Positions 13,999 through 39,100 of a DNA stretch of 44,260 bases are shown here, piece by piece. The notes under the pieces were generated by a model. The model was not told where the DNA came from. It did no database searches and saw only the letters and a program-made list of their open reading frames with translations. Position numbers and translations under genes: made by a program. Origin of the DNA: Ectocarpus siliculosus (lineage: Eukaryota; Sar; Phaeophyceae; Ectocarpales; Ectocarpaceae); contig FN648619.1 in NCBI GenBank assembly GCA_000310025.1, positions 636,676 through 680,935 on the forward strand, read 5' to 3'. Each line of letters begins with the position of its first letter. Within the stretch, counting starts at the first letter, position 1.

Positions 13999-14772
13999 AT
14001 ACAAATACTCACCAATCAACACATATTTTTTACCACAGTGACCCCCACGCTTAGCCTAAGACCGTGACATAGCTGGAATTTCCGAGAACACTTTTCTACG
14101 GTGGTTAGGCGCACCAATGTGTCTTGGCCAATCAGCGGCCTTCACGCTGTTTGAGAACAACTGTAAATACCAATGCAACACGAACCTTCTTCGGCCGGAG
14201 TTCAACCTCAAATGACCTTCGAGCTCTAGGGAATCAAAAAAAAAAAAATAGAAGTGAAAACGGCCACCGTTGGAGCCAGTTACGCCCCACAAGGTGGGAT
14301 TCCGGTGTTGTGGACCTTCGGCGTCGTCAGATGGCCACCGTTTGTACGGAGCAACCGCCCAGGAAGCATCGAAACGGTTTCCGTCGTATATATCTGAGGA
14401 AAGCTTGGATCGTCCCCAAGTTTGGCAGCTTGACAGGTATTGACGCTACCCATCCGAAAAAATATGCTTGAACACTATTCACAAAGTTTTCCCGCTCCTA
14501 CAAGTAAACCGGCTTATCGGGGTCTAACGGATAGGACCCCCGGAAGCCGGTATATATATATATATGTCTTAAATAAAAAAAACAATTCGGTCGGCTCCGT
14601 CCGGTGTAGGGTGTTGAAGGATTGTACAAAGTTTCGTTGCCCAAGGGGCGAAACTGAGATAGAGCGGTCGATTCGAACTTAAAGTTGTGCCCCAAAAGCT
14701 CCATTATTACGGTATTAGTCTAAATCGAAGTAAATAACGGGTTCGCAGAGGAAATTTCAGGTTCTTGATAAA

Positions 14773-15072
14773 AAGCAAATCCTTCGTTCGGGTTTCTGGA
14801 GATGAGTCACCAAATTTTGCACACTTGTCCGCAAGATCGATATCAAACTTTTTTACGAATGGGGTTTTCGTATTGTTTTTTTATTCGCCGAATATTCAGG
14901 GTCCAGCGCAGCCTTTCTGTTTTAGGAACGTGCGGGACCCCGATTATTCGGCAAATAAAAAAAATCGAAAAAAAACACTCGTGAAAAGTTTGGTATCGAC
15001 CTTGCGGACAAGTGTGCAAAATTTGGTGACCTGTTGTATCTCCAAAAAACCGAACGAAGGATTTGCGGGGAA
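14773..15072. mobile_element. Foldback/hairpin element, arms about 125 bp
   Basis: The left arm contains caaatccttcgttcgggttt, ctggaga, caccaaattttgcacacttg and tccgcaagatcgatatcaaa, running into attcgccgaatattcagggt. The right arm is the reverse complement of these blocks in reverse order (attattcggcaaataaa, ggtatcgaccttgcggacaa, gtgtgcaaaatttggtgacc, cgaacgaaggatttgc). The loop is about 30-40 bp and GC-rich. Arm identity is about 85% by eye. No coding sequence lies inside. This is typical of a non-autonomous foldback element or MITE able to give a long double-stranded hairpin if transcribed. Confidence 0.85.
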
Positions 15073-15129
15073 CAAATTTTGTTTATCTTGCGTGAACAAG
15101 CTTGTACTTCCAAGTACTTCGATACCGTA

Positions 15130-17876
15130 AGGGACTTCGATCTTTGCGAGCTTCTACGCAACAGGCGCGCCACACACAGTGTTAAAGCGTGTGTGATATT
15201 CTTGGAGAGTCTTTGTCTTTGTCTTCTTCACATACAAAACCGTTCCGTTCTCTCTGCCCAGTACCTTCTTCTGTCCGTACTAGTCTAACACTTGACGGGG
15301 TCGATTCCCGTGGTCACAGGCTAACTTACCCAAAAAAGGTATACGAAAATAAAATGGACCCGACTGAGAGTATAGCATGTTAATTCTGCATAGGCCAGGT
15401 GGAAAAATCCTACATGGAGCTGTAGTTCATAAGAACATTTCGCTCTCTACTGCGGGCGTTCCTACCACTGTTGCTCAGCGGACATGCTACATAGGGGCTG
15501 GCCTCTGGGACCAAAGCCTACAAGCTCACAGGACGATACAGCATAAAACAACCCCCTAGAGCACTTTCCAGCTCCACGTGCCACAAAAGTCAACCCTACC
15601 TCGACCAATCCGCCCTCGAACCTGACAGGCCGGGCGATTGTTGGCCTCAGATGTAGTTGTGTATTTCGGGTGGCTATGGGCGCGAAGGGCCTTCAGAACC
15701 ACGACAGAGCTTTACCGGGCAAAAAATGCTGAGCGGCGTTTTCACAGGCCAATGCCGTGTTCTAGTAAAAGTGCATCGATGTCACACTCGCCCTATCCGT
15801 GTTGGAAATCCAAAACACACCCATGGTAACACCCAACAATAAAACTCGAAATCAATGCTCCTCTCTAACGTTACATGAAACATGAAAATGTATATTTTCC
15901 AAAAAAGAAAATACAACACCCGGTCGATCTTCTGCCTCGTACCACCCTTTGTATCACCGGTTGGGAATGGTGCTTCCCGTAGAGAGACCCCCCCCCCCCC
16001 CCCCCCCCTCGGCAAGCGAAAAACGACCATGAAAAAGGGATTCGAGATAAGAATGACATGGAGATATCACTACGACACTAAATATTGGATGCAAGCACGC
16101 CAGGAGAACCGGTATTAACTGGTGCAGTGGCCGTGCTGCTTGGGTCTTTTTGCATGCATCCACTCTTTCTTCCCGAGAACAAGAACAACAGAAATACGTG
16201 ACAAAATGGACCAGGCAACTTCACCACTGCTATGTACTTAATTAACCAAGCCCGCACGAAAAAACGATCAAAACAAATACGAGAAAGGAAACAGCGTTTT
16301 CTAGATGAAATCTAGATAAACACGTCACGCAGAGAAAAAGCAACCAAACGCGACGCCTCCCCCCTTCCGGCCGTCGCAGGAACACCCAGCCCACGAAAAT
16401 CGCAACAACGATGGCCCTCACTGTCGAAAAGACCAACGAGATCGCACAAATACGAGACACGTCTACCGAGTTATCGTAACGCATGTGCCAGAGGAAACCA
16501 TCTGGTCCAAACAAGCAACCGCCACACGTCTACCTCACACGGGCGGCGACTGGGCGATGGCCCCGCGCCGCCGTGTGATACGCCATCTAAACAGTGCATC
16601 CCTACGAAAACGTAGCACGATCCCGTTCGGGAATGTAGGGACCATTTGTGGTATTCGCGCTTGTATCCGTGCGGTATTCTTGTATACGAATGGCCCGTGT
16701 ATCAGTCTAGTCAGTGGCCACCCGCCCTCTGCGGCCTCGCGCGTCCCCTGCTTCCCTCACACGTCCCGCACCAGCAAGCAGCACGGTTCCTCCTCCCTCC
16801 GCTCCGGGTGCACATCTCTAAGACAACGGCTTCCGACCTGTGACCTCGTCCCTCGGAACGCCCATCTCCACAAAAAAATCTTGTCAGACAGCATCAATCA
16901 AGACGTCTCCCCCCGCCCTCGACTTCCTGCACTCCGTGGCAAAGCACCGTTTTTTTTTGTATTTACGCCGCTACATATGTATCTCATCACGCGGCGTGAT
17001 CTCTCCCCAGCCCCGCCCACCGCAGAACCCCGCTTCTTCTCCGGTAGAACAGCACGTATGGCTCGCTGCTGGGGCCCTTGTCGGGCGCTGATCAAACCAC
17101 GGCGCCCCCGGCGGAAAGAACAGAGCCAGTTCGGGAGAGCGAGCGAGCAAGCGAGCCGCCAAAAAAAGGCCGAAAACGTGGCGGCGATAAAGTGACACCG
17201 ATCGCAACAAAAAGGGGGTCGGTCAGTCAGTGCGTACATACATACTATTACATACGGCGGGACACGTTGCATACTGACGCTGTAGCGTCACCACGGGCGA
17301 TGACAGTTGCGGTCCGCTAAAGATGTGAGAGAAAAAAGAAAGGAGCTTCGCGGACAAATATGCAGGCGGACTTGTGTTTTTTTTGTTTTTTGTATGTATT
17401 CGTCCCATTCTTACTAAGGCGCCGGTTTGCAGGCCTTTCGGCGCATGTATCTGACGTATCAGCCGGGGTCGCACAAGAGGAAGGTCACACACAGCAGCTT
17501 TTTTCACAACTTAATTTTTTTTGCAGGAAATATACATCCAGTCACAGAAAGACTATCCGTTCGACATAACACCACAGCATAATCGTCGAACAGGATGTCT
17601 TCAAGTTACTACAGTGGGCCTTTTTTCGTCACCAACACAGATTGAGCCGGGACTCCCGTGCGGCGGGCGGAGGCTGTTGCGAACTTTCTCTCTCTCTGCG
17701 AACACCAAACAAACTTTCTTCGAAGAACGGCGGGATATTCGTTTCTGGGGCGTTGTGCCGAAGTGGGCTTGAAACAACAATTCATCTATCCGGGGCAGTC
17801 CCCGCCGCAACCCGTCGCCTTTAAGGCATCTGCGTCTATGAACGAAACAAGGAAAAGTTGTACTGATGGGCATCGA
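15130..17876. other. Intergenic stretch downstream of the USP gene
   Basis: No gene is supported. It includes a 21-base poly-C run (15988-16008) and scattered A-runs. Long overlapping open frames occur on both strands at 16240-17270. They are biased toward Arg, Pro and Ser, match no family and lack splice or start context, so I treat them as chance. The part next to 17877 should contain the 3' untranslated region of the USP gene. Confidence 0.4.
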
Positions 17877-20800
17877 TCACATCCTCTTGTAGCAGAGTAA
17901 GTCTACCAGAAACTCCACTGTTTTCAGTGAGTGATCGTATGTAAATATTGTCCACAACAAGAAACTGACCGCAACACATCCATGTTGTACGTAGCACACT
18001 CGTTCTACCCGAAACAAAAATGTATTCAATGATTTGCATGGCATTTCTTGTAAAAAAAAAAAAAAACGGAACATATGTTGGCGTGGTAGGCCAACATCCA
18101 TCTTGTAGCATACACCATTTCTATGCGGCAGAAAAAAAAAAAACTGCCAGCGCATCATGTCATGGCACGAGTTCTCACTTGTGGGGCTGACGTGCGAGTC
18201 GTTGAAGCTGTACCACTTCTTGTCCTCGGAGTTCTGCGCGATGGCGGTGTAGTGCCCGGCGCGAAGGCTGCCAGAGTGCTCCTGCGGTTGTAAGACGGAC
18301 GGACGGGGTGGCAACGTGGCCAACAGCCGGAAGCATCCGGTCAGCTATACAAAAGGGAACAGTGAGGAACGCTACTTTGTTGTAGTTGTTGTTGATGATG
18401 ATGATGTTTCTTGAGTGGCGAGTTCTGCATGCAGCAAAGCTGCCGCATAAGCAAACCTCATCAAACCTCCGGAGACGTCAAACCCAGTCAAACAAAAAGC
18501 ATCACCGCCAAGGTAGCCGCCAACTCTCCCTTTGCCTGGTGCCGGTGCAGAGGGAGATAGATTACTACGGCCTGGAGGCTACGGGAACTCGAAACAACGG
18601 TACCCCCCCCGGCCCGCCCCCCCCCAAAGGCTACCGCTTGACTGGTGCACATCGTACCGACACGGCGAAAAGGTCGTAGACGGGAGGGGCTTCCTTGAAG
18701 ATTGGCCCGCCCGCGCGCTGTATGTTCCTGCAGACCACCAAGTTTGCAGACAGAACAACCAAAAGGGGAAAAGATGACAAAAAAAGCCCCGGCGGGAAGA
18801 GGAGAGAGAACTCGTGAGTGAGTGAGTGAGTGAGTGAGTGAGTGAGTGACACAGGCTTTGACCGTCTCTACCAAAAATTAGCAGATTGGTTAGGGCGATC
18901 AACTCTCGTAAATAGCGAGGTCAAGCCCCTTTTGGGGGTAGGCCAACTCATGCACGCGACGAGCTGGAACACACCACCATTGACGCATAAACACCAAACA
19001 CATTCGAGCCTCTCGCTCCGTGGCGAGGGGGGGGGGGGGGGGGTCAGACGGTTGAGGACGAATTGGTAACACATCTCATGAGGTCAAGAGGCCCCTCCAG
19101 TGGGTACAAACCGAAGGTCGAGCCAGTCTCTGTGGCTGAAAAAACAAACCACACTTCCTATAAACGCCGCTTTCTCTTTCGAGTTCAAGCGCGTCAACAC
19201 AAGGAACGCTCGGAACAAGCGCACATGCACGCCACAACGCATTAAGCACCCACGCCGCACCTGGTGAGGTCGAGCCCCTCTATGGGGAAGCTAACGTGCG
19301 TGTCGAGTTTCTGGCGGTAGACAGTCAGAGCGCCCGGCGTGAATAGGAACCTCTTGAGGACCACGATCAGCACGTCCGGGGCGGAGTAGACGTCAAGTTT
19401 CTTGGAAGCCTGTTGGGAGAGAGAGGAGATAGCGAGAGACAGAGGATGATAAACGGGGGGCAGGGGGGGAGGCATGTGAAATCATGAAACACACATGGAC
19501 GTCCGCCCCGTTTCTTCGCAGGCGAGGCGGAGGAGATGGAACAACAAAGGCATTTCGGCGAAAGCAATACCTTAAAAATAGGGTTGGGTGTATTGTTGGG
19601 TTGATGTGTTGGGTATGATTAAATGCTCAGCGTTGGGGACGCAATATCCAAGAGCGCTCGGACTTCCAACGCAAGAAGCAAAAAGCAACCAAAACACAAA
19701 ACAGCCAGCAGAGCACGGACGAGTCCCCCGTCACGTGAAACGCCGCATCGCGCACAAACAAGAACCATCATCGCGGGGAAAAATGAAACGCCACAACGAC
19801 GCTCCCGTTTTTCGCAGCACCACCGACTGTCTGCCTATCTCTCTATCTAGCCCCCCTTGCCCCCCCCCCCGCTCTCTAGCAGGATGCAGCCCACCCTTCA
19901 TGCGACACGCCCAATCCCTCTTCGCGCTTGGTGATGTGATGTGATGTGAGAGCCTGGTGCGGTGAGGACCCGGCGTGCTCCGTCTCGACTTCGTAGGGAT
20001 GCGAGGTCAATGGCGTAACAACTACGGCATGCACGACCATGAGTAACCCCCCCCCCCCACCCCACCTACATCTTNNNNNNNNNNNNNNNNNNNNNNNNNN
20101 NNNNNNNNNNNNNNNNNNNNNNNNNNNNNNNNNNNNNNNNNNNNNNNNNNNNNNNNNNNNNNNNNNNNNNNNNNNNNNNNNNNNNNNNNNNNNNNNNNNN
20201 NNNNNNNNNNNNNNNNNNNNNNNNNNNNNNNNNNNNNNNNNNNNNNNNNNNNNNNNNNNNNNNNNNNNNNNNNNNNNNNNNNNNNNNNNNNNNNNNNNNN
20301 NNNNNNNNNNNNNNNNNNNNNNNNNNNNNNNNNNNNNNNNNNNNNNNNNNNNNNNNNNNNNNNNNNNNNNNNNNNNNNNNNNNNNNNNNNNNNNNNNNNN
20401 NNNNNNNNNNNNNNNNNNNNNNNNNNNNNNNNNNNNNNNNNNNNNNNNNNNNNNNNNNNNNNNNNNNNNNNNNNNNNNNNNNNNNNNNNNNNNNNNNNNN
20501 NNNNNNNNNNNNNNNNNNNNNNNNNNNNNNNNNNNNNNNNNNNNNNNAACCCCCCCCCCCCCCCGCTCTCTCCCTCCCTCCCCGCCCCCCCTTGCCTGGC
20601 GGTGCGTCTTGCATCTCGAGCAGTACCACAGCTCGCTCTGCCCCAGCTCCTCGCACTCGGTGAACTTCTCGAAGCAGCTGTCGATCGGCACGCTCTGGCG
20701 CTCGTTCTGCGCCTCCTCTGCCTTCCTCACCGAAGGGTGGGTGTCCGTCGCCTCGAGCTCGTCCTTGTCGACCAGGCTGTGGGGCTCGTAAGTGGGTCTG

Positions 20801-23800
20801 CCGCGAGGGGGAGGGGGGGGGAGGGAGTTCGGGAGCCAAGGGCGGGTTGTGATAAAGGACAGCGTGCGACGGGGGGTGGCGCACGAAAACGGAGACACTA
20901 ATGACGCATGCTTTCCAACGGCAACAACAGCATTGCCGTCATCCTCAACCAACAACAACGCCTGTCATCACAATCCCTAACAACAAACAAAACAGTACCC
21001 GGGGGCGTCGAGTCCGAAAAGGATGGCAGGACTGATACATAGATCAGGAGCGCGGAAAAGCGGCGGCCCCTGCAGGACCTGGACCTTCACCGGCCGGCGC
21101 GACATCGATCTCAAGGCCCTGCAATTCCTATGTCACCTCCATGCGCAGCTACACAATAGCCTATACTGCCACTGGATGGTGCGGCATCGACCTATTCGAC
21201 CTGCTTTTCATTCCCACGCCAAACGGGTCTTACTCCATGAACAGCTACACACCAACCTACCACTGCCTTTTCCATGAGCAGTCAACGTCACTCAAACTTG
21301 CGAGCGTTATTCTACCACGGTCTGGTATGCACGTTCCGTCATGTATATTTTACCGTACCGTACGGCGAGCGCGCGTTACATGGCAACCGTCTTTGTCCGC
21401 AAAAAAAATAAAAGGGGGCTAGCGGGCGTCCTGTTTTGCAAGTTTTAGTTGCTTGACCATTGACCCCGCGTCCTGGAAAGCACGGAGCATCGTTACCGCA
21501 GGATCGATCACCGATGGCCAACTGTTCCTTCTTACTTTCCCAAAGGGGGACAGGGTGGGGGGGGGGGGGGTATTCACGTTTTGCATGCCTTAGCTCTTAG
21601 TCCATTGACCACGCGTCCTCGAGAGGACGGAGCGTATTTATCACAGGATCGATCACCGATACCCTCCTACTTTGCCACATGGCGGGGAATACTCAAAAGC
21701 AGAGCATGCCGAAGTCGTTAGACCTTTGACCCCGCACCCTTACAAGGTCGGGACGGAGCATGCCGGTGGGCGGCTACTAGTTCCGAACACTGTCGGTGCT
21801 AAGGCTAAGGTTAACGTTGTCAGCAGTCATCGAATGCGGTGTCACCTGTCGCCATCTTGAGGGAACTGGACCTTGAGGGCGGTGCTCTCGTCGCCGCTTC
21901 CTCTTGTGCTGTAGCCCCTGTACGCCGACACCGCCTCGAAAGGCTCGTCGTTCATGGGCACCTACGAGAGGATAGGTAACGGTAACGGCAACGAAAACAT
22001 GCACCACACACCACCAACAGAGAGAGTGAGTGAAAGAGTCGTTCATGGCCAACTGCTCCAGAAGGGGAGAGAATAACGGCGACGAAAACATGCACCCCAA
22101 ATGGAGGGGGGGCGCGCGGGGGGGGGGCAACGTGCTACGCGTCAGCTCGTGAAAGCAGGAGGAAGGGGAGTGATAAAACAACGCCCAAAGGACAAGGGGG
22201 GGGATGACAGAGTCAGGTCACTCCGAGAGGGGAGGACAACAACAAAGATACCGCAACTACACACAAAACCACCACAGGGGGCAGGGGACACGTGCAAGAG
22301 TCATCAAGTCGCTCTTCAAGGGGAGAAATAGACTAACTCGGGCCTAGGACTATTGACCATTGATACAGGGCCACCAAGGGAGCTTGATCGCTGGCGCACA
22401 CGTGTCCCGGAGGATCGGCAACGGGCCTAACGCCGTCTGTTGCTCGTCGGCGATAGCATCGAGACCCTTCGGCAAGACTATTGAACCACGTGCCCTCGCG
22501 AGATATTAAAGTAGAAAAAAGACGACGACGACGACGACGAGAGGAAAGGTGGGGTTCTAAACAACGAAAACGAAACAAGGCACGGGGTGCAGGACGAAAA
22601 ATCCTGTCTGCGTGGCCCCGAAGCCCCGAGGTGTGTAGGTGTTACAGACTCGGGAGTTCAGGCTGCACGAACAAAAAAATGAAGGGAGGGAGGAAAAATT
22701 ATACTCCCATATAACGAGACGTCGCCTGACCGTAAAAGGTGGTCTAGAGTGCCCCGGTCCTTCGCTAAAAACGTCGCCTCCAAAACAATCGTCACCTCAG
22801 CACCGATGCCCTTGGTTGCGCTGGTAGTGCTGCCGCTGTAGTCCGTCACGAACACCTTGTACGGCAGCGCATCTACCACCTCGCCCTCCTCCTCCTCCTC
22901 CTTGCCCTTCCCCTTCGCCGCCGCCGCCGCCCCCCCCTCCGGCTCGACGACGCTACTACCGCCCCCCGCGTTCGCGTCGCCGGGGGGCGACGCAGATGCG
23001 GAGGAAGACACCAGCGTGGCCCCGCCGCTGCTTGCGGTCGTGGCGGAGTCTCCGCCCCAGACGTCGTCGACGTCCATCTCCGCCTTCGCCGCCCCCGCCG
23101 ACGTGGGGGATGGCAGGTCTCCGTCCCCGTCCGAGACCACCGCGGGGCTCTTCTTGACGTGCACGAAGGGGGATGAGTCGCCGCTGTTGCTGCTGCTCCT
23201 GCTGCTGCTGGTGGTGACGGTGGGGGCGTCGAGCGCCATGGTGTCGGTGATGTGGACGTAGTCTCCGTCGATGTCGCTGAACGGAGGGAGAGCAAGTAAA
23301 CAAGCAGGGAGACCTGAACAAATCGGCTACTTCTTCGCCAAAAAAAATGTTCTTGTAGGGTTGTTATTACCGTCGCTCTTGCAAGTGTCATGAGGGGATC
23401 AAACAAATGTTCTGGTTGACGAATACAAGCGCTTGGTGAACGAACGCTCTGCGCTTTCTTCTCCGCATCTCGACATCGCAGCAGCTTTACACAAACGTAT
23501 ATACCGTACATGAACAGTAGCAGTCTTGGCGCGACGCCCACTCAAAGGCAAGGAGACAGGTGGGGGGGTGGGTGAGAACAGGCGGGCAGTGTTGGCAATT
23601 CAACACGTGGACGGAGGTTCGCAAGGGTTTTCATCAGCAACCTTTCTCGGTTCGATGCCGGGCGGATGTTTCGCCTCTTGCGGGACCACTGGCGGCAACC
23701 ACGTCGCTCTGAGGCATGCGGCAGGCTGAGCTCTATGTCGTATTCGTAACACTACCAGAGCGTTGATTCGTAGAGACAAACCTACATCTCCTCAAAAAAA

Positions 23801-26103
23801 CAAAAAAAAGGTCAACAGCATAGATGGGCGGCACGAAAACACACCCCTTCGGCAGGCCGCACTTGCCGTTGTAACACGCAAGACTTGATTCGTGTGCTGA
23901 GACAACAGTCGCGCTTGCAATCCAACGCCCTAATCGAAAAAAACTTGCTTGGCTCCATACTAGCACGGGCTCTAGCTGCAGTATTACGGTACCTCGTGGT
24001 ACTAATGCCGGCCTCCTGCGCCGCCTGGTCCCCCCCCGCCGCCGCCGCCGCACCACCCACGGCGGTGCCGCTCTCTCTCTCCTTCGGGGTGGGGTTGAGC
24101 GACGGCACGAGGCGAGCCATGTGCCTCCGGATGATGCCGTGGATCTCGTTGTTGGTAACCCCGTTCCTGACAAAAAAAAACGGCAGATGGTCCGTGAGCG
24201 ACGAGGTGGGGTACGGGGTATAGTATAGGACGTAAGGGATGATGCATCCCCTTTGTCGTTATGCGATTTGACTCTTACAAGCAGCTGTTTGTCCTTGTTA
24301 ACAATCGCTGGAGCCCCAGAAAAAAAACGCATACAAGTACACAAATGGCTGGCTGAGATGGACGCAAGGAAAAATCACACACAACAAAAAAAAAAACGGC
24401 GCAGCAGACAGCAACCACAACAACAAATAAAAAAACAACATCAGCCAACAACAATCTCCCAAACGTGGGCCGGCGCGTCAGCTACCCCCATCGCACTACA
24501 CACCTGCACGTGATGCGCCGCGGCTTCCCCTTGAGGGTCGAGTGCGGGTACGTCGACAGCAGCAGGTCGATCAACACGCTCGGGCCGTCTCCCTCCCCAC
24601 CGCCACCTTCACCCCCCGCCCCAGCGTCTACGCCGCCGCTGGTAACCGGCTTCCCGTCCGCCTCCCCGGTACTCTGCGAGGACGTCTGCCCCGAAGAAGA
24701 ACCTCCCCCCCCCCCGGGGAGGGGGGGTACAGCGGTAGCCACGGACCCCCCCCCCTTTTCCGACGAGCATGACGACGGCAGCGGGAACTCGAGCTGGCAC
24801 ACCGCGAAGTCGTCCGTGGGCTTCATGTCCGACAGGGGACACGAGTCCTCCATCCCCTTGAAGACCCTCGAGGACCACACCTCCATTACCGCCAGGAGGT
24901 CCTCCGTCAGCAAGCCACCTCCACCCTGCTGCTGCTGCTGCTGCTGCCTACGGACGCCCGAGCAAATTGTTAACGAGAGGTGCCAGGGACGACAGGAGTA
25001 GGGTGAAAAGGACGGCGTCAACGACACAAGCCTTGTTGCGCGGTATACGCTATGATAGGCCCGCATATCTTCATGTCGGCATAATGTACGCCTGTGCGTG
25101 TCTTTGTGGTTAGCATTGGATGCGTCAATATTGTTGGCATCGACAGCGCTGACCTGCTCACCAATGAAACGACGCCTGTGGATGTGTGAAAGTCAAGCTC
25201 AACATATTCGGAAGCCCCTCCCGATCTATCACTTGCGGCAACGGCAAAAATCACCCGGCGATGCGATCCCCCCTGGCTATCCCTCGGCCCCCCGCGGTCT
25301 CGTCTAGAAACAGGGCAGGGGGGGGCTACTTAAGAGGGGACAGAGAGAGGAGTGCGAAACACTGAATAGTCTTTGGGGGTCTCCACACAAAGGACGCGTC
25401 GTCGCAAAGGAACACATCGTTACGGCCAAAAATTGGTGCCATCTTCAATGGCACTCACACCGGTTGCCCCGGTGGTCTGGTTGGTATCCTCGAAACCTTC
25501 TAGAGGTCAGGTCAGGGATTCGAATCCCGGCGTAAGCGAGCTTTTCTTGCAAAGTGAGGTTTTCTCTCGCTTACGCTCCTGGCCCAGTGGATAGCGCTAC
25601 GTAGTTCGTGTGTACACAGAGGGAAGAGAGTGCTGAACTCTTCTCGCATTAAAAATCGAAGACAAAAGTACCGCAGGAGGGGAGGCTCTTCTGTGTGACC
25701 ACGGGTTGGAGTTAACGGCACTAGTGCTGTGAGCGCTGATTTGAAGTGAAGACAAAAAAAAAAAAAACACTAGGATCAGCGGCTCCCCTGCAGTACGGCA
25801 ACCCGCCTACGCCGCACCGCCCGCGGGCAACACAAGCGAAACAACCACCCAAACGAAATTCATCAAATACACCACAGAGACACGAAATACAGATACGCCA
25901 TGGTTGAATTCGAGGGACAACAAGCCGTGCGTGCATTTTCTCACTTGGACTGAGGCCTCTCCTGGTTGTACCGCTGGCAGATGGCCGTCTTGAGGTCTCG
26001 GACGGTGTTGTCCTTCTGGAGAGTGACGGCCACCTCCATGGGCCTCGAGCCGTACGGGAGGGGGTGAAACAGCACCTTCACCTGTAGGGATGATATTAGG
26101 CAT

Positions 26104-26143
<40 letters not shown>

Positions 26144-28834
26144 AGACGGGCCACAGTATCGTGAGAGGCGCAACAGGCACGAGCCACAGCAGCAGAACAG
26201 GCGAAAACAAAAAATTGAGGCTTCAACTGCTGTCGCAATAGGGGCAGCAGGGAGACAGGGCATCAAACGATACGCACCGTGAGACGCGCAAAAGGTACGT
26301 GGCAGACAGAGCAGAATCGGCGGAAAAAAAAGTAAACAATGAATCTGTCGGTAGGGGAAACGGGGATGAATCTACACATATAGATCGTGTCAAGAAAAAA
26401 ACACAAAACGCGAGGGTAGCTTTCAAACTTTCAAGCCGCTGTTCGGGGGGCGGAGGGTTCCGCGAGCTACCCAAGACTCGAAACAACAACACCGTGCGCA
26501 AACACAAGCAGCAATCCGAGCTTGAACGCCAAAAAAGTGACATCAACAATAGCTTGGCCGGAGCGACATGGCAAACGAAAGGAGAGAGAAAAGCGGGTTT
26601 CCACCTGCAACCCACCGCCTCGACCAATCATCAGATACCACCCAACAGACCGAGCTAAACCTTAGCCAAGAGCTAAACCTTAGCCAATCGAATCGTCCCC
26701 GTTCCTCACCATGACGGCCGTGTCGAACGGCAACGGGAGCGAGAGGGACGTGTAGGGGTCGAAGGTGACGCTGGACAGGTTGCACTCCGGGCACGTGACG
26801 TGAGACCGCAGCAGCCCCTGCACGCGGGAAAAAAAAAAAAAAAACGCGCATGGAGCTGACTGTTGTATGAGGTCGCAGGCAAACCTCTGCACGAAGCGCA
26901 GCCAGCCGTTAGCGGCAGCAGCAGCCAGTAGTAGTAACAGCGTGGGGGTCACAGTGGGTCACGAACTTGATATGAAGGCCCCGTGTTTCAGGCCTCGTTC
27001 GAACCTCCCTTCCTACGCTTCGATGGCTCTAGCCGATGTGCACCACCTTTATTTGGGGGTTGTTTTTCATCGGAGCTCTGATTCCGGGAACACACACTTT
27101 GCTTAAGGTCACGGCAATACTACATCCACACCGCGGCAAGCTTGTTGTTATAGACAAGAGACAGCCCGAGAGAAAGCGATAGATAGGTCTCGCACTAGGT
27201 AGACAAGAGAAAGCCCAGAAGAAAGCGATAGGTATGCCGTCCACAAAACCACAAACATAAACAAAAAATCACCCAACAACACGTTGGCAAGGGGTGATTA
27301 AGTTGGTTTTGTGTTGAGTGCCTTTGCTCTACTTAGCTCACCGTGCACGTGTCGACCATGACGGAATCGTTTCGCATGAGGTAACGCCTCCAGCTCTCTT
27401 CGGCCACCACGCGATCGGCTCTCCCCGCGGAGTCCACCGTCTCCATGTACGGCTGCACCCCCCCCAAAAGCAAACCCCGACGACAAAACGGCAACAAGCA
27501 CAATTAAGGCGGCAGAAGAAAAAAGGCAGGAACATTGTATCAGTAAACTTCGCGAGGAAACTAAGCTCGGCTGCTCCCCCCCAAAAGCTAAAGCCGCTGA
27601 CTATAAAACGGTATTAGGCAAAAAAAAGAAAAAAAAAGCGGCCGAATAATGGCAAGTCAACTAGTATCAGTGGCCTTCGTGGGGAAAAAATAAAGCTTGG
27701 TTTGAGTAGGGGGTACGCGGTTGGGGGTTAGGGATAGGGATACGAACCCAGACCCCCCTATTTCATACATCAAAATGAAGTCTTCGCGAAGGCGATCCCG
27801 TAGTATGCATTACGCGAAACGTATCCCAACAGGCTCTGGGGCACTCGAACCATGGCCACAGCACGGCGCAAGCGACTGCTGTATGAATCTCTAACGCGCG
27901 CGACGCGTGCGTGGAAGTACCACCGCATTCGTGGAACTTCCGGCGAATCGAGATCTACGAATGAGCACATCTACGGACGAGCGCAGACAATTCTACGTAG
28001 AAGCCTAAATGACTGAATGATAGCAGGTATTGTGAACCTGGTTGGGGTCCTCACATCAGTAGAAACGCTACTGCATGGCAGAGGCTACAACCAAAAGGTC
28101 GTAGCATACAACAGGACAGCATACCTTGTGGAATCCGGTTGAGGCCCTCTCATCTACGTAGAAACCTATCACATGATTCTGGCTGGTCCTCAAATCTATG
28201 TTACTCACGAATCAAAAAAGCCTTGGCCTAGAAACGTCACTGCATGGTAGATGGAATAACTAGGGGAGATATCGCCGTGTGATGCTCGGGGAATCGTGGA
28301 AATACAGGTAGCCTTCGCTGACGCTATTTATGGATGCATTGCTAATCTATCTTAGACTCATTTCTTGGATAGAGATGGATTCGTCGGGTCATATTTCAAA
28401 AATATATAATAAAAACCAAATGGCTGTCAAGAAAAAAAAAAAAAAAAAACGGCCGTCAGCGGTCGGACAGTATATGTACCTTCTTGTGGACCCGGTTGAG
28501 GTCCTCGTGGATGCCGTCCAGCAGGAAGCTCATGAGCTCGCTGGCGTCGTGCTGCTGGTACCCCGCGAACATGGGCGCGTACTGGGACACCACCTTCTTG
28601 ACCGTGTTGGGCACCACGACGGAGTACTCCCCCGACCACGCCTGCGAGACGACACAGTCCCACGAGCGTAATGCAAGAGGTTTATTGTGTTGTTGAGAAA
28701 CTACGCGTACGATGAAAGAAAAGACTACCCGTTCGAGGTGAAACCACGGTAGAATGACGGTGTGGTTTATATAAATAAAGTCTTTTGTATTGCTTCTCCC
28801 TCCCTATATCTCTCGTAATGTCACTTCTATCACA

Positions 28835-28920
<86 letters not shown>

Positions 28921-30066
28921 ACTGCTATTGCTCCTTGTCCCCTCTCACAAACGTCATCTTCAAGTCACTCAAAAAAAATACTAGCACCTCCCTCCCTCTC
29001 TCTCACATCGCCATGTCACCTCAAAACATAGCATTTCCCTCCCTCTCACATCATGAAGCCACTTCTACAGCATCTCCCCCCGTCTCTCTCAAACATCGGC
29101 GTGAAGCCACGCCAAACATATCATCTCCCTCTCTCGCTCTCTCGCTCTCTCGCTCTCTCTCTCTCTCTCGTCACTATGCCACACACGGCCATCACATATA
29201 TAGCATCTTCCTCTCTTACACACATCGTTAAGCCACTTCAAATACAGCATCCCCCTTCCTCTCACATCATCGTTGAGGCCCGCGTACGCCGCCGCCATCT
29301 TGCCGCCCATGCCCAGGGGGTTGTCCTCGTTAACCTCCCGCTTCCAGTGCTGGCTGCGGAAGTACGTCGACAGCGACTCCGTGGCGAGGAGACACTGCAG
29401 CATGCTGGGAGGGGGGCGGGGGCGGCGGGACAACGAGCAGTCGAGGGGGGCGCGCCACAAGAGGTAAAAACGAAATAATGACTTTTATCCTCCAAAAAAA
29501 CACAACAACTAACTATCCGAGATTTATGTTGATAAAATGCTACCACCTACACGATAAACATTTTTTCCCTGGACTAGTTATGTGTGGACAGAGACGAACA
29601 TGCGTTGGTTTTTCTGGGAAAAATTGCACACAAATAAAAAATACTAAATACACGACGAACGAATAGCTGCACGTGCATCATATATTGTTCGTGGACTCTG
29701 CATCTGCGGAACAGGAGACGAATATTGCATGTGATGGCTTGTCAAAGAAAAGGTAGTTCACAAAAAACGAGAAGGCACTACATGGAGGAAGGGTTGACAA
29801 AAAGAGTGTGTCGATGTCCTCCCCCGCCGTACAGCAGTACCCCCCAAAACAAAAGGGGATAAAAAACGAGTCTCACCTGTTCATGAAGCACGTGTTGCCC
29901 AAGTTGCTGAGTCCGACAGCTCCGCGAGTGATAGGCTTCGCCTTGGTGTTGGTGCGGTAGAACCCGTACGATCCTCCCGTGCCGGAACCACTGCCCGACC
30001 GCGAACGACTGATTTCGGTGCGGAAGGGGAGGGGGGGGGGGGGTCCACGCGGAGGTGTATGTGTGC

Positions 30067-30105
<39 letters not shown>

Positions 30106-33100
30106 GACTCCTGTTTTGCATGACCCTTGACCACGCGTCCTCGAGAGGACGGAGTAATTGTTCCCAAGAGACCTAACACCGTCGGCCAATCGTTAATTCT
30201 TACTTCGCAAAGAACGGAGGTTCAAAAAGCATTTTCCTAACTTTCCTAACTATCTATCCTATCGACATCCACTCGCGGTGCGGAGGGGAGGGGGGCTCCA
30301 AGCGGAAGGGGGAGCAGTCATCGGCAATGAGACAATTCACACACGGCGGCCGGCTCAAACCAACCCCAATCTTATCCCTCACACACGGCCAACGGATGGC
30401 CTGGCGGCAGAGAATTAGGCGAGAACGCGGCTGCTCCGCGTCCCTGGAATTTCGAGACAGAGAGAGAGAGGGCGCTGGAGAGGAATCGACCGCCCGAACC
30501 AACGCTCGACCAATCAGAGGGCGTAAGAGCCATAGATAGCAAGAGTCACTATCAGACCGCAAGAACTACTGGAGATTGTAGCCTTGTACTGAGCCAGGAC
30601 AAGGAGCGAGAATCGTGCCAACAGCTAATTACTCGGTACGTAGATCGGGAGAGCATTAATGATGAAAAAAAAAAAAAAAAACTTCCAAACCTTGTCTCCA
30701 GTCTCCCGGGGGGCAAAACAACTCACCCTGAAACAGCCGGATGAGGATATTGGGGGGGGCCATGGCACACGTGAGGATTGGTGACCCTACACCATTTCAA
30801 CGGACAAAATATGATTCTAGAGGGGGTTAGGGTGGCGTACTTGTGAGTTCGGGCTGGGAGGGCCTTGTTGATGTGCGTGTGAGCCTTGCATATATCTTCG
30901 CTGTCTTCCGGCATCCATTGGCTCCCGACGTCGTTATCTGAGACCTGAACAGCAAAAAAAACGCGCGACAAAAATACACAGCGACGATTGTTACAAGGAA
31001 ATGGGACGGCATGTCGTATGCACACAAGGGTTGGAGATCGACCAAACCCAGCGACGAACAGGGAAATGGGACAGCGTGTTGCATGCGCACAGGGGCTAAA
31101 AAAAAAAAACGATCAACCCCGGCGACGAATGCAGGGAAATGGAACGGCGTGTTGCATGATATGCATTCAAGGGTTCTCATTGTCGTTGTTGGAGACCTGA
31201 ACAAAACAAAACGGCCACAACCAGCCTCGAGTACTAGGGAAATGGGACGGCGTATTGTATGACCTTGTACAAGGGCCAGGGATTCTGAGGGACCCCCCAT
31301 GTCTCGTCACAGCAGTCCGCGGCACTCACCGACAAGAAATGGTAAACGTCGGCGACCCATTGGAAACAAATTACTGATGAAACCTTTCAAAAAAGGGCCC
31401 AACAGTCGCGTTTAACTTCGCAAACGGCGTTGTTCTACTCGTCAATATCAACGGCATACGCACGACGCGAGATTATATGAACAACGTGGTTGAACATGAA
31501 CCACCACCAGAATACAAACAAAACGTGCCGCATCCGATTGCTGTCCTCTTTTCACCTCACCGTAAGCCAGTAACAAGCACCCCACCGCGATGCGCAGCTA
31601 CAGCAGTGCTTTCTAAAAAAAGCCAAAATCGCCAGGCCTCAATGTCAAACTTCACCAAAAAAAAAAACACTTCAACGGAGGAATGGGGTCTGGCGCCTTG
31701 ACACACCTCAGCAACAACAAAAACCTATCCAAGAGGTGGGGTGGGGGCGCCGTGACACACCTCCACAACAACAGAAACATCCAAGGGGGGGGGGGGGCGC
31801 CGTGACGCACCTCGATGTACAGCAAGCGTTTTCCATGCTCGTGCTTGACCTCCCCCACCGTGGCCTCGTACCACTTCTTCACCTCGTTCCTGCAGGAGGA
31901 CACCTCGCACTTGGAGTTCACTTGAAGGTCCTGATCACACAAGGTGTTTGTTTTTCGCACGTGAGACCAACAGCGACACTCCCTAAGCGAATGAACAATT
32001 CATTCAGAGAACTTGGAGTTCACTTCAAGGTCCTGGTCATCATTTGGAATTTTTTTTTGTTCGCACACATGCGAGACGAGCAGCGAACGCCTCCCAACAA
32101 GTGGATGAACTCTTCAACGAAACCTCGTACATTTGTCGTTCACTTGAAGGTCCTGGTCATCATTTGCAAAAAAAACACTCGCACGCACGCGAGACCAAGA
32201 GCAAAGACCTCCTCCAACAAGGCGAACAAACAATTCAACATCTTGAAAAATGTTCGTCGCGATTGTCCCAATCATCGGAAATGACCAGAGCCTTCATCGA
32301 GAATAGACGGCGCTCTACGGACTGTAGTTTGTCCGGCAGGGGTGGTCAGTAGGCACTTTTGTTTTCTTCTTCTTGCATCACCTGCCGCCACGGCGTGGTG
32401 AAGGTGTGAAGCTTCTGCAGCGCTTCCGAGCTCCGCTTGAGAACCTCGTCCCACTTCTCCGACCACCCCAGGAAGTGAACCTGCCCGAGTCAAGCCCCAG
32501 GCGTCAAAGGTTGCGCAACAAAACAGACACGCACGGATGCCGTCAATGCTAACGGTAGGGTTTCGTTTTCTCCACTTCCTTTATTCTCCTCCACAAAAAA
32601 ACACAAACAGATGTATGTGACGGGTGCAATCAGTCACATGGGAGGGGTGTGGTTTTCTCCACCGCCGTCATTCTCCTTAACAAAAAAAAAAAAAGTCATG
32701 ACTCCACCCCCGTCATTCTCCTCCACCAAAAAAAAAAAAAAGGTATGACTCCACCCCCGTCATTCTCCTCCACAAAAAAAAAAAAAACATGACCGAGAGG
32801 GTGTTGACGCGGGTTCTGCTTCGCAACCCTGCGTCGCCTCCGGGAAAAAAACAAAACAATTCCATGGCCTACAAAAACAGAGGCAAAACAAGAGCTGCAA
32901 GAGCCGATGCACCCCTGGAACCAAGGTGTGGACCAGACTTGCCGGAAACAAAGAAGTATGATATGGTTATTCGGTCGTGGTCCCTGTTTAGCGGGATGCC
33001 GTCAATAGCGGTTCCAAAGTCTCGTGGCACCGCTCCGCCTCGGTAGCCAAACTACAATATAACTGCCAACAATCCGTTTTTTAGCGGCGATGCCCTCAAT

Positions 33101-36100
33101 AGCGGTTATTTAACATTTTGTGACACTGGGTCAAGAATGGTTTGAGATTGGGTGCGCTTTTTTTTCGGACGTGTTCGCTAAACCGGGACCATGACTACAT
33201 TTCGAATGGGAAGTCCTTCCTTGATTGTATGTATACAAACAATTTCGAAAAGAATGCATGCAAGGGTCTTCATGTCCCGACCTTAGGAATTCAAGAGCCC
33301 CAGAGGGCATGTTGACGTCATGCATGGCGTAGGTGAATAACGCGCAACCCACGTCCCTCGAATTTCCTCCAACGCCTGCACCGAAATGCACTTCTTAGTC
33401 CCCACTACTCGGCAAGACCTGGACCAACGCAAGGCCGGGGCGCCGTGAGGTTGTGCGGCGCTCGGTACCCCCCCCCCCCCTTTGGGATGCTGCGTCCTCC
33501 CTTGGGGGTGTTGCGTGTCCTCTCTCGCGGACACGTGGCCAATGGTCTAACAAAACGAAGGCATGGTACAACACACACGAGTACAAAGCTCCCCCCGGGA
33601 TGCGAGGACTATGGTCTACTGACCACGGCATGCGGATACATGAGTACACCCACCCCCACCCCGCTCGTACCTTCACTTGCTCCGGGTCCCCGTCCACATC
33701 TACCTCCGTCACCCTCGATTCGAACCAGTTCTTGTCCGAGTCTCTGCAATAAAAATGACCAATAAGAACCAAGACGTCAACACCATCGGGCATAAACAGA
33801 GACGAACCAACACACAGTAGTGCGGTTTTTGCCTAGAGCAACTACGTAATGTATTTTGTAAACTATGGGACACGGACACATCGGAGCTTGCTTTTCCGGA
33901 CAGCGAATAGACGGTTCGTTTTTCATTTGCCGGGAACAAGAAAGAAACAAAAAAACAGTTGATTCCCTCACAGCTTCCGAAGCATGTAAATCAAGAATTC
34001 GAGGAGTAGGAAACTCCGAAAAACAAAACAGTAAAACTGCCGACCATGAGACAAAATAGTCAAGATTCATTCGCCCATACGGGACGCGACACAAGATACC
34101 ACACCCCCAGGACCGATTTTCAGAGCTCAAATACTCCACGGCGCAGACGATCCAAAAATAAAACAAAATACTCCGTATACATTTCCAGGAACCTCTCCAC
34201 GAGACCACTCCTACCCCGCCATTTTCGGCAGCGCCATTCTTCCTGCTTCGGAGAAATCGATCTTTGAAAAGTCCGTCAAGGGGGTCTGATATCTTACGCC
34301 ATGTCACCTACGGTAGCCGCGCGCACCTGGCGTCGATGAGGTCTCCGGCCTTAAGGTTGAGCCTCCATCTCAGTAGGATGTGATCCCTGGGGAAGCTGGT
34401 GGAGGCGGCCGGGTCCGACGTGTCCTTAGTCTCCACCAGCAGCGCCACCGACTGAAACAAGAACCCCATCGCAGCATCGAAATCAAAGCAGCGAGGGCGA
34501 GCGACGAGATTACAGAACTCGTTTCGAGAGGATGGGCATACCTCACCATGTCGGCGACACAAAAAACAAGCGGCGAGGACAACGAGGAGGTGACGAAATT
34601 CGGCCACAGGGACATGGGGGCGCAAATCAATCAGCCCTAGGAGGACCAACGATGATGATGATAAGACGACAAGCTCGGTCCGAACGGAGGGACATGGGGG
34701 CGTGAGTCAACCAATCGGCTCTGCCAAGACAACGTTGCGAGGTCACCGATGACAATCATGAGATGTCAAAACTCGGCCCGAAAAGAGAGACACGGGGGGA
34801 CTGAGTCAACCAATCAGCTGTCGGGGGACCCACCCCCTCCCGTCGTTGGCCCCTTCGAGGGGAACACGGACAGCCGATAAGCCCACGAGGCGTGCCTGCC
34901 TGCGCTGTCTCTCCCGCAAGCAGGGCAGTTCGACCTTCGGTACTCGAGCATGCTCACCAACGACTGCCTCATCATCATCATCATCATCATCAACAACGAA
35001 CAACGACACTACTTGCAGTACCACCAAGAACAACAGTAAAAACAACAACAACAACACGCCACCACCATCACCACCACCACCATCATCAACAACAGCAAAT
35101 TAAGCCACCTGCGTGTCCCCCATGACCTCGTGCAGCGATTGGCTGACCTCTTCCAGGTGTATCGCCTTCTCACCCCCAGCCCCCAGCACACGTTTCCCCG
35201 GCATCGAGGAGACCACGCGCGAACAAAACAAAAGACAAAACAGTAGAAAACAGCGGTTAACATCTCAGAAACATACATGCGTCGTTGCTTGTCTTGGCAC
35301 CAGATCTTACGTTCACATGAGCTGTATCTTCCAACTAAAGAGAGAGTAATCGCGTGGCAAACGTACCCTTTTGGCACACATCACCGACGTTAGTTGAATA
35401 TGCCCGTGGTAGCAAATTTGTGTTGTACCGTGTGGGTGGGTGCGCCGCGACGACAAGGGTACAAATATCCCATGCCCCCTACCAATTCCCCGTGTCCCGT
35501 ACGTAGCTCGCCCCCGACTGTCAGGCGGCAAACCGCAAAATTGTGAGCACGCAGCCAACGGCGCTTTCCCACTGAAACAAAAAAAATAACAAGTTTGTGG
35601 GGCAGTGGCATTCAAACGACGAGGTAGCTGGCCGAATGGATACAGTACACCGCTACCACAGACGAGACTCTGGAGGCCACGTCGGCGCCGAGAGGTACGA
35701 AAGGAGTGACCGAGCTCTCGGGATCGTTCCGAGGAACGGCGCCAAACGGCTCTCACCTGCCAACCATCGTCTTCCGCGCCTTCCGTGCTCCCCGCACCAG
35801 ACCCGGTCGCTGCCGCCGCCGCACCGCCCGCCGTCCCTGCTAGCGTGCCACACGACAACAGTTCTTGTTCGTGAATTTGGACATCGGTTTCTCGCGTTCT
35901 TCGCCAAGGATCGGCACTGTCACCATCCCTCCTAAACTGTTGCTGCTGCTGCTGCTGTTGCTGGTATGATCTGCATATTTTCTCATCATTTGTTCAATCA
36001 GCGTTCATAGCTTTTTTGCCTGGTAGAAGCTGGCTCCCGTCCGTGGCCACACAGAAGCTGCCTGTGATGCCACATGCGACTGCTCTTCAAACCATATAAC

Positions 36101-39100
36101 ACGAGGGACTAACAAACAGAAAAAGAGGCTTTTGGCGTGAGTGTGGACCGCTACGGTAAAGTAGCACGTCCCTCACCTGCCCTCGATAAAGAGTTGACGC
36201 ACCATAGCGGCGAAATCACGCCGACTTCGGCCTCCTTCTAGGACAACCATTTCTAACCGCTGACATAGGCGTACTTTCATCGGTCAGCCGGTGAGCGCAT
36301 GCGAACTAACAAAAACACACACGCCGTCACACACCCCAACAACCAACACAGCCGCCAGGACGCGCACAGACCTTGCTCCGCCTCCTCCAGCTTCTTGAGG
36401 CTCAGACGCGTGTCCACCCGGGGGGTGAGGTTGAGGCTGCTCTTCACGTCCGCGCAGATCTGTCGCATGGTCTTCGCCCGGCTGTAGAGCTGTACGCTGA
36501 CGCTGTCCTCGTCGGCCCTGCCGTCAGGCAGGCACGTGTACACCATGAACCTGGCCACCGCCGCCGCAGCGCCGCCGATAAAAAAGCATCAGCCGCGGGA
36601 GGACGAGAAGGAGGAGGAGGAGGTGGGAGGGGCGGGTCGTTGGGTGGATTGCCGGACGGGATAGTACAGCCCCACAAAGGCATATGCTTGATTGTGCTTC
36701 GATCCAAAGCGATGGTTGTAACTGCCACCTGACCGTAACCGTAGCCATACATGTACAACCTGTTTGTGCCCCCCGCCCCCGCCCTCCCATGCGCCGCTTC
36801 ACCTTTTAATATTGTGCTCCTCAACGAGACAGAGCAATAACAACAACGATCACAGCGACGACAACAACAAACAACAATGACCAAAACAAATGTGTCCCCT
36901 CCGTACCCTTCATCCCCCCTCGTTCTGAACGCCGCTACAACACAAACGGGAGACCCCTACCCCCCCCGTTGTCCTCACCTGACGGGGAAGAGCTCGACCG
37001 TCAGCTGCGTGCGCGCATCGTCGCCCAAGGACACCACCCAGCGCTTGAAGCGAGGCCCTCCACCGTACCACGCCTCCAGCAACTCGTACGCACGGTTGTG
37101 CAGCAGCACGTAGTCCTCTCCCTCCATCTGGCCAAGAAAAAAAGAAGGGCATCACGCGCGGTTGGTCAACAGCAAGTAGTCCTCTCTCTCTTTTTATCTG
37201 ACAAGAGCATCACCCGCGGTTGTTCAACAGCACGTCGTCCTCTCTCTCTTCTATCTGACAAGAGCATCACCCGCGGTGGTTCAACAGCACGTAGTCCTCT
37301 CTCCCTTTTATCTGACAAGAGCATCACCCGTGGTTGCTGAACAACACGTAGTCCTCTCTCCCTTCTATCTGACAAGAGCATCACCCGCGGTGGTTCAACA
37401 GGACGTAGTCCTCTCTCCCGTCATCTGACAAGAGCATCACCGCTTCACCACACTGCCGCTGCCTTTGTTGTTTCGATTCCACGTGCAGGCATTCCCCCCC
37501 CAAAAGCTTGAACCCAGCAGCACGACCGGGCCACAACGACACCATCATCCACCACCACCATGAGGGAAGGGATGCGTTGGATGCTCTACGGGCGTCGGAG
37601 GGGCGAGCAGCTCGAAACCAAAGCTGACAAGTGTCCTCTCCGTACACGACAGCAAACGGCTTCTACCATGGATTTACCGTGGTTCATCAAACCACAACCA
37701 TGGCGGTGCTGCTCTCGCCACCCTCCGTCGAACACGGCTCGACATCCCAGCATCGGTTTCACACAGCACGGTGCAGAGTGACCGCACCCCCCCCCTCCCC
37801 CCCTAGCCCGGCTTCCAAAGCTGGACTGCTGCTGCACTACACCAAAGAGGGCTAGTGCGAATGAAAAGACCGATGCGTGCAAGGAAAATTCTCTATGATA
37901 TATTTCCAAAGACGACCCTTTTCGGCGCTCAACCTGTTGGTTGCCGTGCAACTGAGCTGAGGGATAATCGCTCGAGGGCGTGTGTGAGATTCCTCGCACT
38001 TTTGAGGCTGCACCATGGTGCTACGCCATCCTTGTATGCATATATATTGTTGTGGTATCCCCTACTAGGGATTCAAGGTCAGACAGAAACAAGTCCCCTC
38101 AGGTGTACGCATTATATTCAGGCCTTTTGCGGGAACGTTTCAGCAGCCCTCTTTCCTCCGTCGACCGTCAACGTCGGCCAATTTTGTACGCAACACAAGA
38201 CAAAGTGCTTCCCGAAGACCACCACCACCACCACCGCCGCCGCAGTCATGCCGGGAGCTGGCTGGACTTACGCAGTCGACCATCTAACGCTTGCAGGAAA
38301 CACCTAGCGCGTCGACCACCCGACGGGGTTGTTCCGAAACAACAAGTGGAACGAGGCAACACCGCCGTGGTAGTTCACGGCCCCCCCGCGGACCGCCTTC
38401 GCGGGAAACTACGTCTTGCGACGAACAGCAGAACAGGGAGGGGGTACGCAGAACCTATATCCCTAACCCTAAACCCTCACCCAACTTGCCCGATTGCATG
38501 CGTTGTCTTGACATGTTGATAGATAAAAGCCTGCGAAAGCTACCGCTCCCCCCATTTAGGACCTAAACGTAAACCACACGACGTTTACAAACGTGGTGCC
38601 CGTACGCGCCGCGACTCACCAGGGTCTCGCGAAGCTCGCGGCCCTCCCCCAACGTTCGGTTGTCGATCGGACCAGGGCCCGCCCGCTCCGTGAACGACGA
38701 TGCCCTCTCCCCGCCGCCGCCGCTGCTGTTACCCCCCTCCTCCAGAGAAAGCTCCGCCACGCGGTGTTCGTTGGTGTCGGCCTTCACCGCGACGCCGGCG
38801 ACGTCCTCGGCTTTCACCAGCACGCCGTCTTCGTCCATGCTGCTTGGCGTGGCGGACTCCGTCGCCGCTGCCGAAGGTGGTGGCTCCTTGGTGTCGTCGA
38901 AGCGCACGAAGGCTCGCCAAAGTTGCCACCACTTACTCCCCAGGACGTACCAGACCTTTTGCACCAGCGAAAAGCAGTGGGATGAAATTGCGACAGACAC
39001 ACACATCAGCAGCAGCAGCAGCAGCATGTGGATGCGGCAGGAAAAGCAGGAAGATAAAAAATGAGACAAATGCACACAGCAGGAGCAACAGCAGCAGCAG

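What the first reader, a model, noticed from the sequence alone, without database searches (positions are those of the whole stretch)
18915..31262. Exon-boundary duplication is a recurrent process across this gene
Beyond exons 3 and 10, the same pattern is visible at exon 11 (acceptor copy near 31180), exon 13 (donor copies 28700-29265), exon 21 (acceptor copy near 22045) and exon 23 (two decayed copies of the 3' coding end at 18915-19112). It is also visible at exon 1 of the neighbouring EF-hand gene (6646-6850). Seven independent cases in one window suggest a genome-wide tendency for tandem duplications to start at exon edges, or selection retaining duplications that carry splice signals. 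I know of no standard annotation class for this.
Basis: partly seen in the sequence, partly recalled or inferred. Interest (0 to 1): 0.8.

Follow-up and report, generated by a model that had tools for sequence, protein, structure and literature searches.

The report
Decayed exon-edge copies inside introns
Short tandem duplications are scattered through the introns of this genome and some happen to cover an exon edge, leaving decaying copies of splice sites in the intron; the copies are real, but exon edges are not shown to be special targets, and the same structure is already known in amphioxus as 'mirages'.

Summary
The copies are real. Of 68 exon edges in the two window genes, 9 have a significant copy in the adjacent intron (about 0.7 expected at the threshold). 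One of the two exon-23 copies is borderline.

The reading 'duplications start at exon edges' fails its own test. Pooled over six genes, edges carry a copy about as often as intron DNA beside them and inside introns: 10/111, 19/216, 188/2502. Exon interiors give 0/302, sampled non-adjacent introns 0/394. Outside the window edges are not higher (1/57 against 91/1486; interval of the difference includes zero). Local copies in introns are direct, not inverted (100 against 7 of 1265 tiles). Crossing clusters number 8 of 22, with 6.9 expected from random placement.

So intron-wide small tandem duplication sometimes covers a boundary; the coding copy is kept and the intronic copy decays. The structure is in print as 'mirages' in amphioxus. 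One residue stays open: exon overhangs are short (at most 35 nt). The genome looks like a brown alga near Ectocarpus (inferred, not tested).

The parts
36979..37441 (-). USP exon 4 (36979-37127) and the 57-nt minisatellite upstream of it (37145-37441, 5.2 copies); about 35 nt of the unit is exon start; five copied AG sites at 37424, 37368, 37311, 37254, 37197
   Evidence: TRF; p 0.0025; HSPs (79-84% identity) reach 35 nt into the exon; splice scores (true 7.6, copies 2.6-4.3)
31811..32169 (-). USP exon 11 (31811-31930) and two decayed acceptor copies in its upstream intron (near 32152 and 32032)
   Evidence: 27 of 29 nt, p 0.0025; HSP 159 columns, 72%; both copies keep AG but score lower (1.9 and -0.6 against 4.2); stretch single copy in the genome
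30841..31261 (-). USP exon 12 (30841-30944) and acceptor copy 31182-31261
   Evidence: p 0.0025; 91-column HSP, 71%; copied acceptor scores 9.7 against 9.2 for the true one
28938..29404 (-). USP exon 14 (29266-29404) and tandem copies of its donor region downstream (29195-29232, 29028-29098, 28938-29009)
   Evidence: first unit 31 identical of 41 columns, p 0.002; at the position scored in that unit GT is not kept
28030..28641 (-).
   Evidence: p 0.0025; second copy 20 of 23 nt, p 0.001; copy at 28125 keeps a donor scoring 5.7 against 4.5; stretch single copy in the genome
21846..22099 (-). USP exon 23 (21846-21961) and acceptor copy 22038-22099
   Evidence: p 0.0075; longer alignment 49 identical of 65 columns, p 0.001; a 401-base stretch holding the copy is single copy
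18917..19409 (-). USP exon 25 (19261-19409) and copies of its 3' coding end at 18917-18937 (good) and 19115-19135 (borderline)
6656..6982 (-). EF-hand gene exon 1 (6830-6982) and donor copy near 6657-6679 in intron 1; weaker piece 6737-6750
   Evidence: 20 of 23 nt, p 0.0025; weak piece p 0.013
3896..4484 (-). Two further intron copies 4206-4259 and 4287-4346 match intron DNA that ends 11 nt before the exon
   Evidence: 26 of 31 columns, p 0.0025
16987..38838 (-). USP gene (ubiquitin C-terminal hydrolase, DUSP-like N-terminal part), 28 exons
   Evidence: own gene finder; Pfam (DUSP below its cut-off)
893..6982 (-). EF-hand gene, 8 predicted exons
   Evidence: Pfam EF-hand_1 1.9e-6

Best explanation
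Introns of this genome accumulate small local tandem duplications. Shown here: they are direct; for pairs lying wholly in introns the distance between copies is mostly 73-306 nt (10th-90th percentile) and the median identity 82%; the three stretches searched are single copy in the genome. Their placement shows no clear preference for exon edges. When a unit happens to cover an acceptor or donor, splicing can keep using one copy (the downstream acceptor or the upstream donor), so the coding sequence is unchanged and the other copy becomes intron and decays (inferred; no RNA data). The exon copy is frozen by selection on the protein, so such pairs should stay recognisable longer than two intronic copies and catch the eye (inferred, not tested). 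Units that would cover much of an exon are missing, probably because they are selected against (inferred). Replication slippage or gap-filling repair followed by unequal exchange, as for other minisatellites, is the likely source (general knowledge, not tested).
For: Edge rate about equals intron rate: 10/111, 19/216, 188/2502, with 0/302 exon interior and 0/394 sampled non-adjacent introns. Sliding profile without a peak at the edge, zero for tiles centred 40 nt or more inside the exon. Base coverage by duplication arms is lower at the edge (4.9% at 0-20 nt) than deep in introns (10.5-11% at 160-400 nt). Crossing clusters 8 of 22 against 6.9 expected from random placement with overhang up to unit or exon length (P 0.38). 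Direct exceeds inverted in introns: 100 against 7 of 1265 tiles; 53 against 1 HSPs in 67 introns. Introns with a direct HSP 17/67, shuffled introns 0/67. Three stretches, holding copies of 3 of the 9 window edges, are single copy genome-wide.
Against: Exon overhangs are too short for uniform breakpoints: P 2e-4 that all 8 are at most 35 nt, mean relative overhang 0.19, P 8e-4. Window edges alone are somewhat above their introns (9/54 against 140/1489; interval of the difference just includes zero). Introns carry more duplications than intergenic segments (17/67 against 13/107, Fisher 0.038, post hoc), but this rests on the window's introns (12/33; other genes 5/34). In intergenic DNA the direct excess is weaker (127 against 58 of 3314 tiles) and absent in the window's own intergenic DNA (9 against 10 of 435).
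Confidence: 0.8

Rival explanations
1. Exon edges are preferred start points of tandem duplication, for example because of polypyrimidine tracts, R-loops or nucleosome edges.
For: Short exon overhangs; 8 of 22 clusters cross an edge, P 0.018 at the 35-nt cap; window edges 9/54 against 140/1489 intron tiles.
Against: Pooled rates equal; coverage is lower at edges than deep in introns; 6.9 crossing clusters expected from random placement, 8 seen; outside the window edges are not higher (1/57 against 91/1486); the window was picked by a reader who had seen the pattern.
Confidence: 0.12
2. Selection keeps duplications that carry splice signals: copies act as decoy or alternative splice sites, for example to lower expression through premature stops.
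For: Some copies keep sites scoring as high as the true site: 9.7 against 9.2, 5.7 against 4.5, 6.6 against 6.6. Read by eye, use of the exon 12 and exon 15 copies would run into early stops.
Against: No excess of edge-bearing duplications over other intron duplications; other copies score lower or have lost the signal; identities of about 71-96% alone predict many intact dinucleotides.
Confidence: 0.06
3. Remnants of intron gain by tandem duplication of AGGT-bearing exon segments (Rogers model; compare the potato RdRp case).
For: Exon-derived sequence lies inside introns; tandem duplication is a listed mechanism of intron gain.
Against: The signature of that model is absent: intron start against downstream exon start 0 of 49, intron end against upstream exon end 0 of 46 testable introns. 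Old gains could have lost it.
Confidence: 0.03
4. Chance similarity or low-complexity sequence.
For: A few single pieces are weak (19115-19135, 6737-6750; exon 14 array in purine-rich DNA).
Against: 9 of 68 at p <= 0.0075; 0 of 394 against non-adjacent introns; 0 of 67 shuffled introns with a direct HSP.
Confidence: 0.01

Closest known systems
Amphioxus 'mirages' (globins BflGb6 and BflGb9, Adh3, troponin C, PGBD5)
   Same: Minisatellite-like tandem duplications of exon-intron boundaries, both 5' and 3' boundaries, units about 10-160 bp, many but not all copies with AG/GT signals (passages of PMC3087553; one passage of PMC3902484).
   Different: Another lineage (probably a brown alga). Several copies here are more decayed (71-87% identity in most crossing HSPs; BflGb6 units 81-100%). 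Here the boundary cases are compared with the intron-wide duplication background. No RNA or polymorphism data here.
[quoted passage not shown]
   Same: A tandem duplication crosses an intron-exon boundary (abstract and Results section of PMC4974935).
   Different: There a new intron and inserted exon sequence arose; here the predicted exons are unchanged and the copy lies inside an intron.
Internal tandem repeats at exon-intron boundaries of human segmental-duplication genes
   Same: Minisatellite units at boundaries (passages of PMC2812944).
   Different: There they change transcripts in young paralogs; nothing of that kind is shown here.

Membership tests
Mirage (minisatellite-like tandem duplication of an exon-intron boundary) | Tandem copies that contain both exon end and intron end | tested here: met
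   9 of 68 window edges; of 53 direct HSPs in 67 introns, 11 cross an edge and one more lies in an exon end only. For exons 15 and 25 the aligned part is exonic only
Mirage (minisatellite-like tandem duplication of an exon-intron boundary) | Occurs at both 5' and 3' boundaries | tested here: met
   window: 5 acceptors, 4 donors
Mirage (minisatellite-like tandem duplication of an exon-intron boundary) | Many but not all copies keep AG or GT | tested here: met
   AG in all 10 acceptor copies scored; GT in 3 of 4 donor copies scored (exon 15, EF-hand exon 1, CCTq intron 4; not the exon 14 unit). The second exon 15 copy and the exon 25 copies were not scored; by eye their GT is gone
Mirage (minisatellite-like tandem duplication of an exon-intron boundary) | Does not disturb normal splicing | not testable with these tools
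   no transcript data; only the conserved protein reading supports it
Mirage (minisatellite-like tandem duplication of an exon-intron boundary) | Length instability between alleles | not testable with these tools
   one assembly only
Intron gained by tandem duplication (Rogers model) | Intron start resembles downstream exon start, intron end resembles upstream exon end | tested here: not met
   0 of 49 and 0 of 46 testable of 67 introns
Introner or other dispersed element | Unit present at many places in the genome | tested here: not met
   one place each for three stretches searched; the search skips very common words and the other six edges were not searched

The most novel reading that the evidence does not exclude
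Duplications that reach an exon are cut off within about 35 nt of its edge, with perhaps a twofold excess of such short-overhang crossings. This could reflect a real edge-linked breakpoint process, or a sharp limit set by exon recognition on how much exon can be copied into an intron. Either would make introns of this genome a standing store of ready-made decoy splice sites.
Probability: 0.15. Interest if true: 0.55.

Novelty: new member of a known kind. Interest (0 to 1): 0.32.

Why it matters
It shows that a structure described gene by gene in amphioxus also occurs in another, probably very distant, lineage, and that it can be explained as the visible edge of an intron-wide duplication process without edge-specific targeting. 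It gives a position-matched test that others can run genome-wide. It also warns annotators: some copied splice sites score as well as the true ones and could mislead gene prediction.

Tried and rejected
Tried: a first self-training of the gene finder diverged and was discarded; stricter intron costs worked and transferred to two chaperonin genes not used in training. A first alignment listing wasted its top rows on self-matches; only the off-diagonal rows were used. Intron tiles with two-sided targets (edges 9/62, tiles 106/812) were replaced by one-sided, position-matched ones, because an edge can only find a partner on one side. Dropped before counts: the doubtful 19-nt exon, edges with short or masked queries or short targets (54 of 68 window and 57 of 68 other edges kept); introns with over 100 N (67 of 68 kept and the catalogue behind 69). 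In one search non-adjacent introns were sampled at random. tRNA and Rfam scans of the window were empty. Rejected: dispersed element for three stretches, intron-gain signature, chance.

Literature: a search that joined brown algae with boundary-repeat terms found 0 papers with at least 5 of its 6 terms. The other listings (lists of at most 15, some cut) showed no brown-algal report of this by title or abstract start; most subscription papers are not held, so absence from print is not shown. The primary mirage paper (Adh, 2002) and the 2009 internal-duplication paper are not held; I know the former only through PMC3087553.

Limits: one genome, six genes, gene models without RNA; much of the C10, C1 and C5 blocks reads N. 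The organism is inferred: 189 Mb, GC about 53-54% in the unmasked blocks, median intron 612 nt, against 524 bp on Ectocarpus autosomes (a passage of PMC12477816); it was not tested.
Full report
What was claimed. Copies of exon edges are said to lie in neighbouring introns at seven places in one window, and this is read as a tendency of tandem duplications to start at exon edges or as selection for copied splice signals.

Gene models. The window lies on contig C138 of a 189-Mb genome in 492 contigs. No annotation was available, so I built an exon-chaining gene finder and trained it from hand-read exons. It returns a 28-exon ubiquitin-specific protease gene (one doubtful small exon dropped) and an 8-exon EF-hand gene, both on the minus strand and both supported by Pfam. 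For comparison outside the window I used four genes in fetched stretches: two chaperonin genes found through PF00118, and two that I name by eye as a ribosomal protein L17 gene and a RAD51C-like gene (recalled names, no family search). The two chaperonin genes were not used in training; the other two lie in training blocks.

Is it there? Yes. Of 68 window edges, 9 have a significant copy in the adjacent intron. The finest case is exon 4: a 57-nt minisatellite with 5.2 copies whose unit is about 35 nt of exon start plus the end of the intron, so five copied AG sites stand upstream of the true acceptor. Pieces that do not hold up well are the exon-23 copy at 19115-19135 and the second EF-hand piece. 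Outside the window, 2 of 68 edges in four genes have copies, both in one chaperonin gene; one of these is 22 of 23 nt with the donor intact.

Is it special to exon edges? With position-matched, one-sided targets, edges show copies in 10 of 111 cases, intron tiles beside edges in 19 of 216, intron interior tiles in 188 of 2502, exon interiors in 0 of 302, and edges against sampled non-adjacent introns in 0 of 394. The difference between edges and intron tiles, resampled by intron, is +0.012 with a 95% interval of -0.039 to +0.065; it is +0.073 (-0.007 to 0.152) in the window and -0.044 (-0.105 to 0.015) in the other genes. A 40-nt tile slid across the edge has a rate of 5-10% when centred anywhere from 100 nt inside the intron to 10 nt inside the exon, 5/111 at 20 nt inside, 3/111 at 30 nt inside, and 0 from 40 nt on. 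Coverage by duplication arms is 4.9% in the first 20 nt of intron and 10.5-11% at 160-400 nt. This is the pattern of an intron-wide process that spills over the edge and is absent from exon interiors, not of one that begins at the edge.

What kind of process? Local copies in introns are direct: 100 of 1265 tiles against 7 inverted, and 53 HSPs against 1 in 67 introns. For pairs lying wholly in introns the median distance is 132 nt and the median identity 82%. 17 of 67 introns have at least one direct HSP (window 12 of 33, other genes 5 of 34), against 0 of 67 shuffled introns and 13 of 107 intergenic segments (Fisher 0.038, post hoc and resting on the window). In intergenic DNA the direct excess is weaker: 127 against 58 of 3314 tiles, and 9 against 10 of 435 in the window's own intergenic DNA; some of the intergenic DNA looks like transposons. 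Three stretches searched against the genome were single copy, so these at least are local duplications and not insertions of a dispersed repeat. The signature of intron gain by AGGT duplication is absent (0 of 49, 0 of 46 testable introns).

What does not fit neatly. Of 22 duplication clusters 8 cross an edge. If overhang is capped at the observed 35 nt, 3.8 are expected (P 0.018); at 50 nt 4.9 (P 0.075) and at 80 nt 6.6 (P 0.31); with overhang up to the unit or exon length 6.9 (P 0.38). So the number of crossings is ordinary, but their exon parts, 5-35 nt over the 12 HSPs that touch an exon, are shorter than expected: under uniform breakpoints the chance that all 8 clusters stay at or below 35 nt is 2e-4, and the mean relative overhang of 0.19 has P 8e-4. 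I favour selection against units that copy more exon, since these would be more easily taken up by the splicing machinery, but a breakpoint preference is not excluded. More genes are needed.

Consequences for splicing. Some copied sites score as high as the true one: exon 12 acceptor copy 9.7 against 9.2, exon 15 donor copy 5.7 against 4.5, chaperonin donor copy 6.6 against 6.6; most others score lower. Read by eye, use of the exon 12 and exon 15 copies would meet early stop codons. Whether any is used cannot be told without RNA.

What is known. Tandem repeats spanning exon-intron boundaries are in print as 'mirages' in amphioxus (globins, Adh3, troponin C, PGBD5), with both boundary types, variable unit length, partial loss of splice signals and, as far as reported, no disturbance of splicing (passages of PMC3087553; one passage of PMC3902484). 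Boundary-spanning tandem duplication is also described in potato intron gain (abstract and Results of PMC4974935) and in human segmental-duplication genes (passages of PMC2812944), and tandem duplication is a listed mechanism of intron gain (passages of PMC3443670). The present case is therefore a new member of a known kind, with the added result that the boundary cases can be explained by the background of intron duplications.

Noticed in passing
window 7665-8055 and 13954-15106: Imperfect inverted repeats (arms 32-64 nt, 70-96% complementary) in the stretch between the two genes, perhaps remains of hairpin or terminal-inverted-repeat elements.
   Followed up: no
window, within about 20070-20550: About 470 N inside intron 24 of the USP gene; a gap or withheld stretch.
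   Followed up: no
C40 and C5 blocks (L007-L011, L019-L022): Related retroelement-like coding stretches, by eye of the LTR type, in two contigs.
   Followed up: no
introns against intergenic DNA, all blocks: Short-range direct duplications were about twice as frequent in introns as in intergenic segments (17/67 against 13/107), and inverted ones rarer (7/1265 against 58/3314 tiles). Post hoc, resting on the window's introns, and partly confounded by transposons.
   Followed up: partly
USP gene, about 32382-33743: Between the N-terminal part and the protease core the predicted protein has a weak chromo-like match (MORC2 chromo model, 19.7 bits, below its cut-off of 27), an unusual insert for a USP (recalled).
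   Followed up: no
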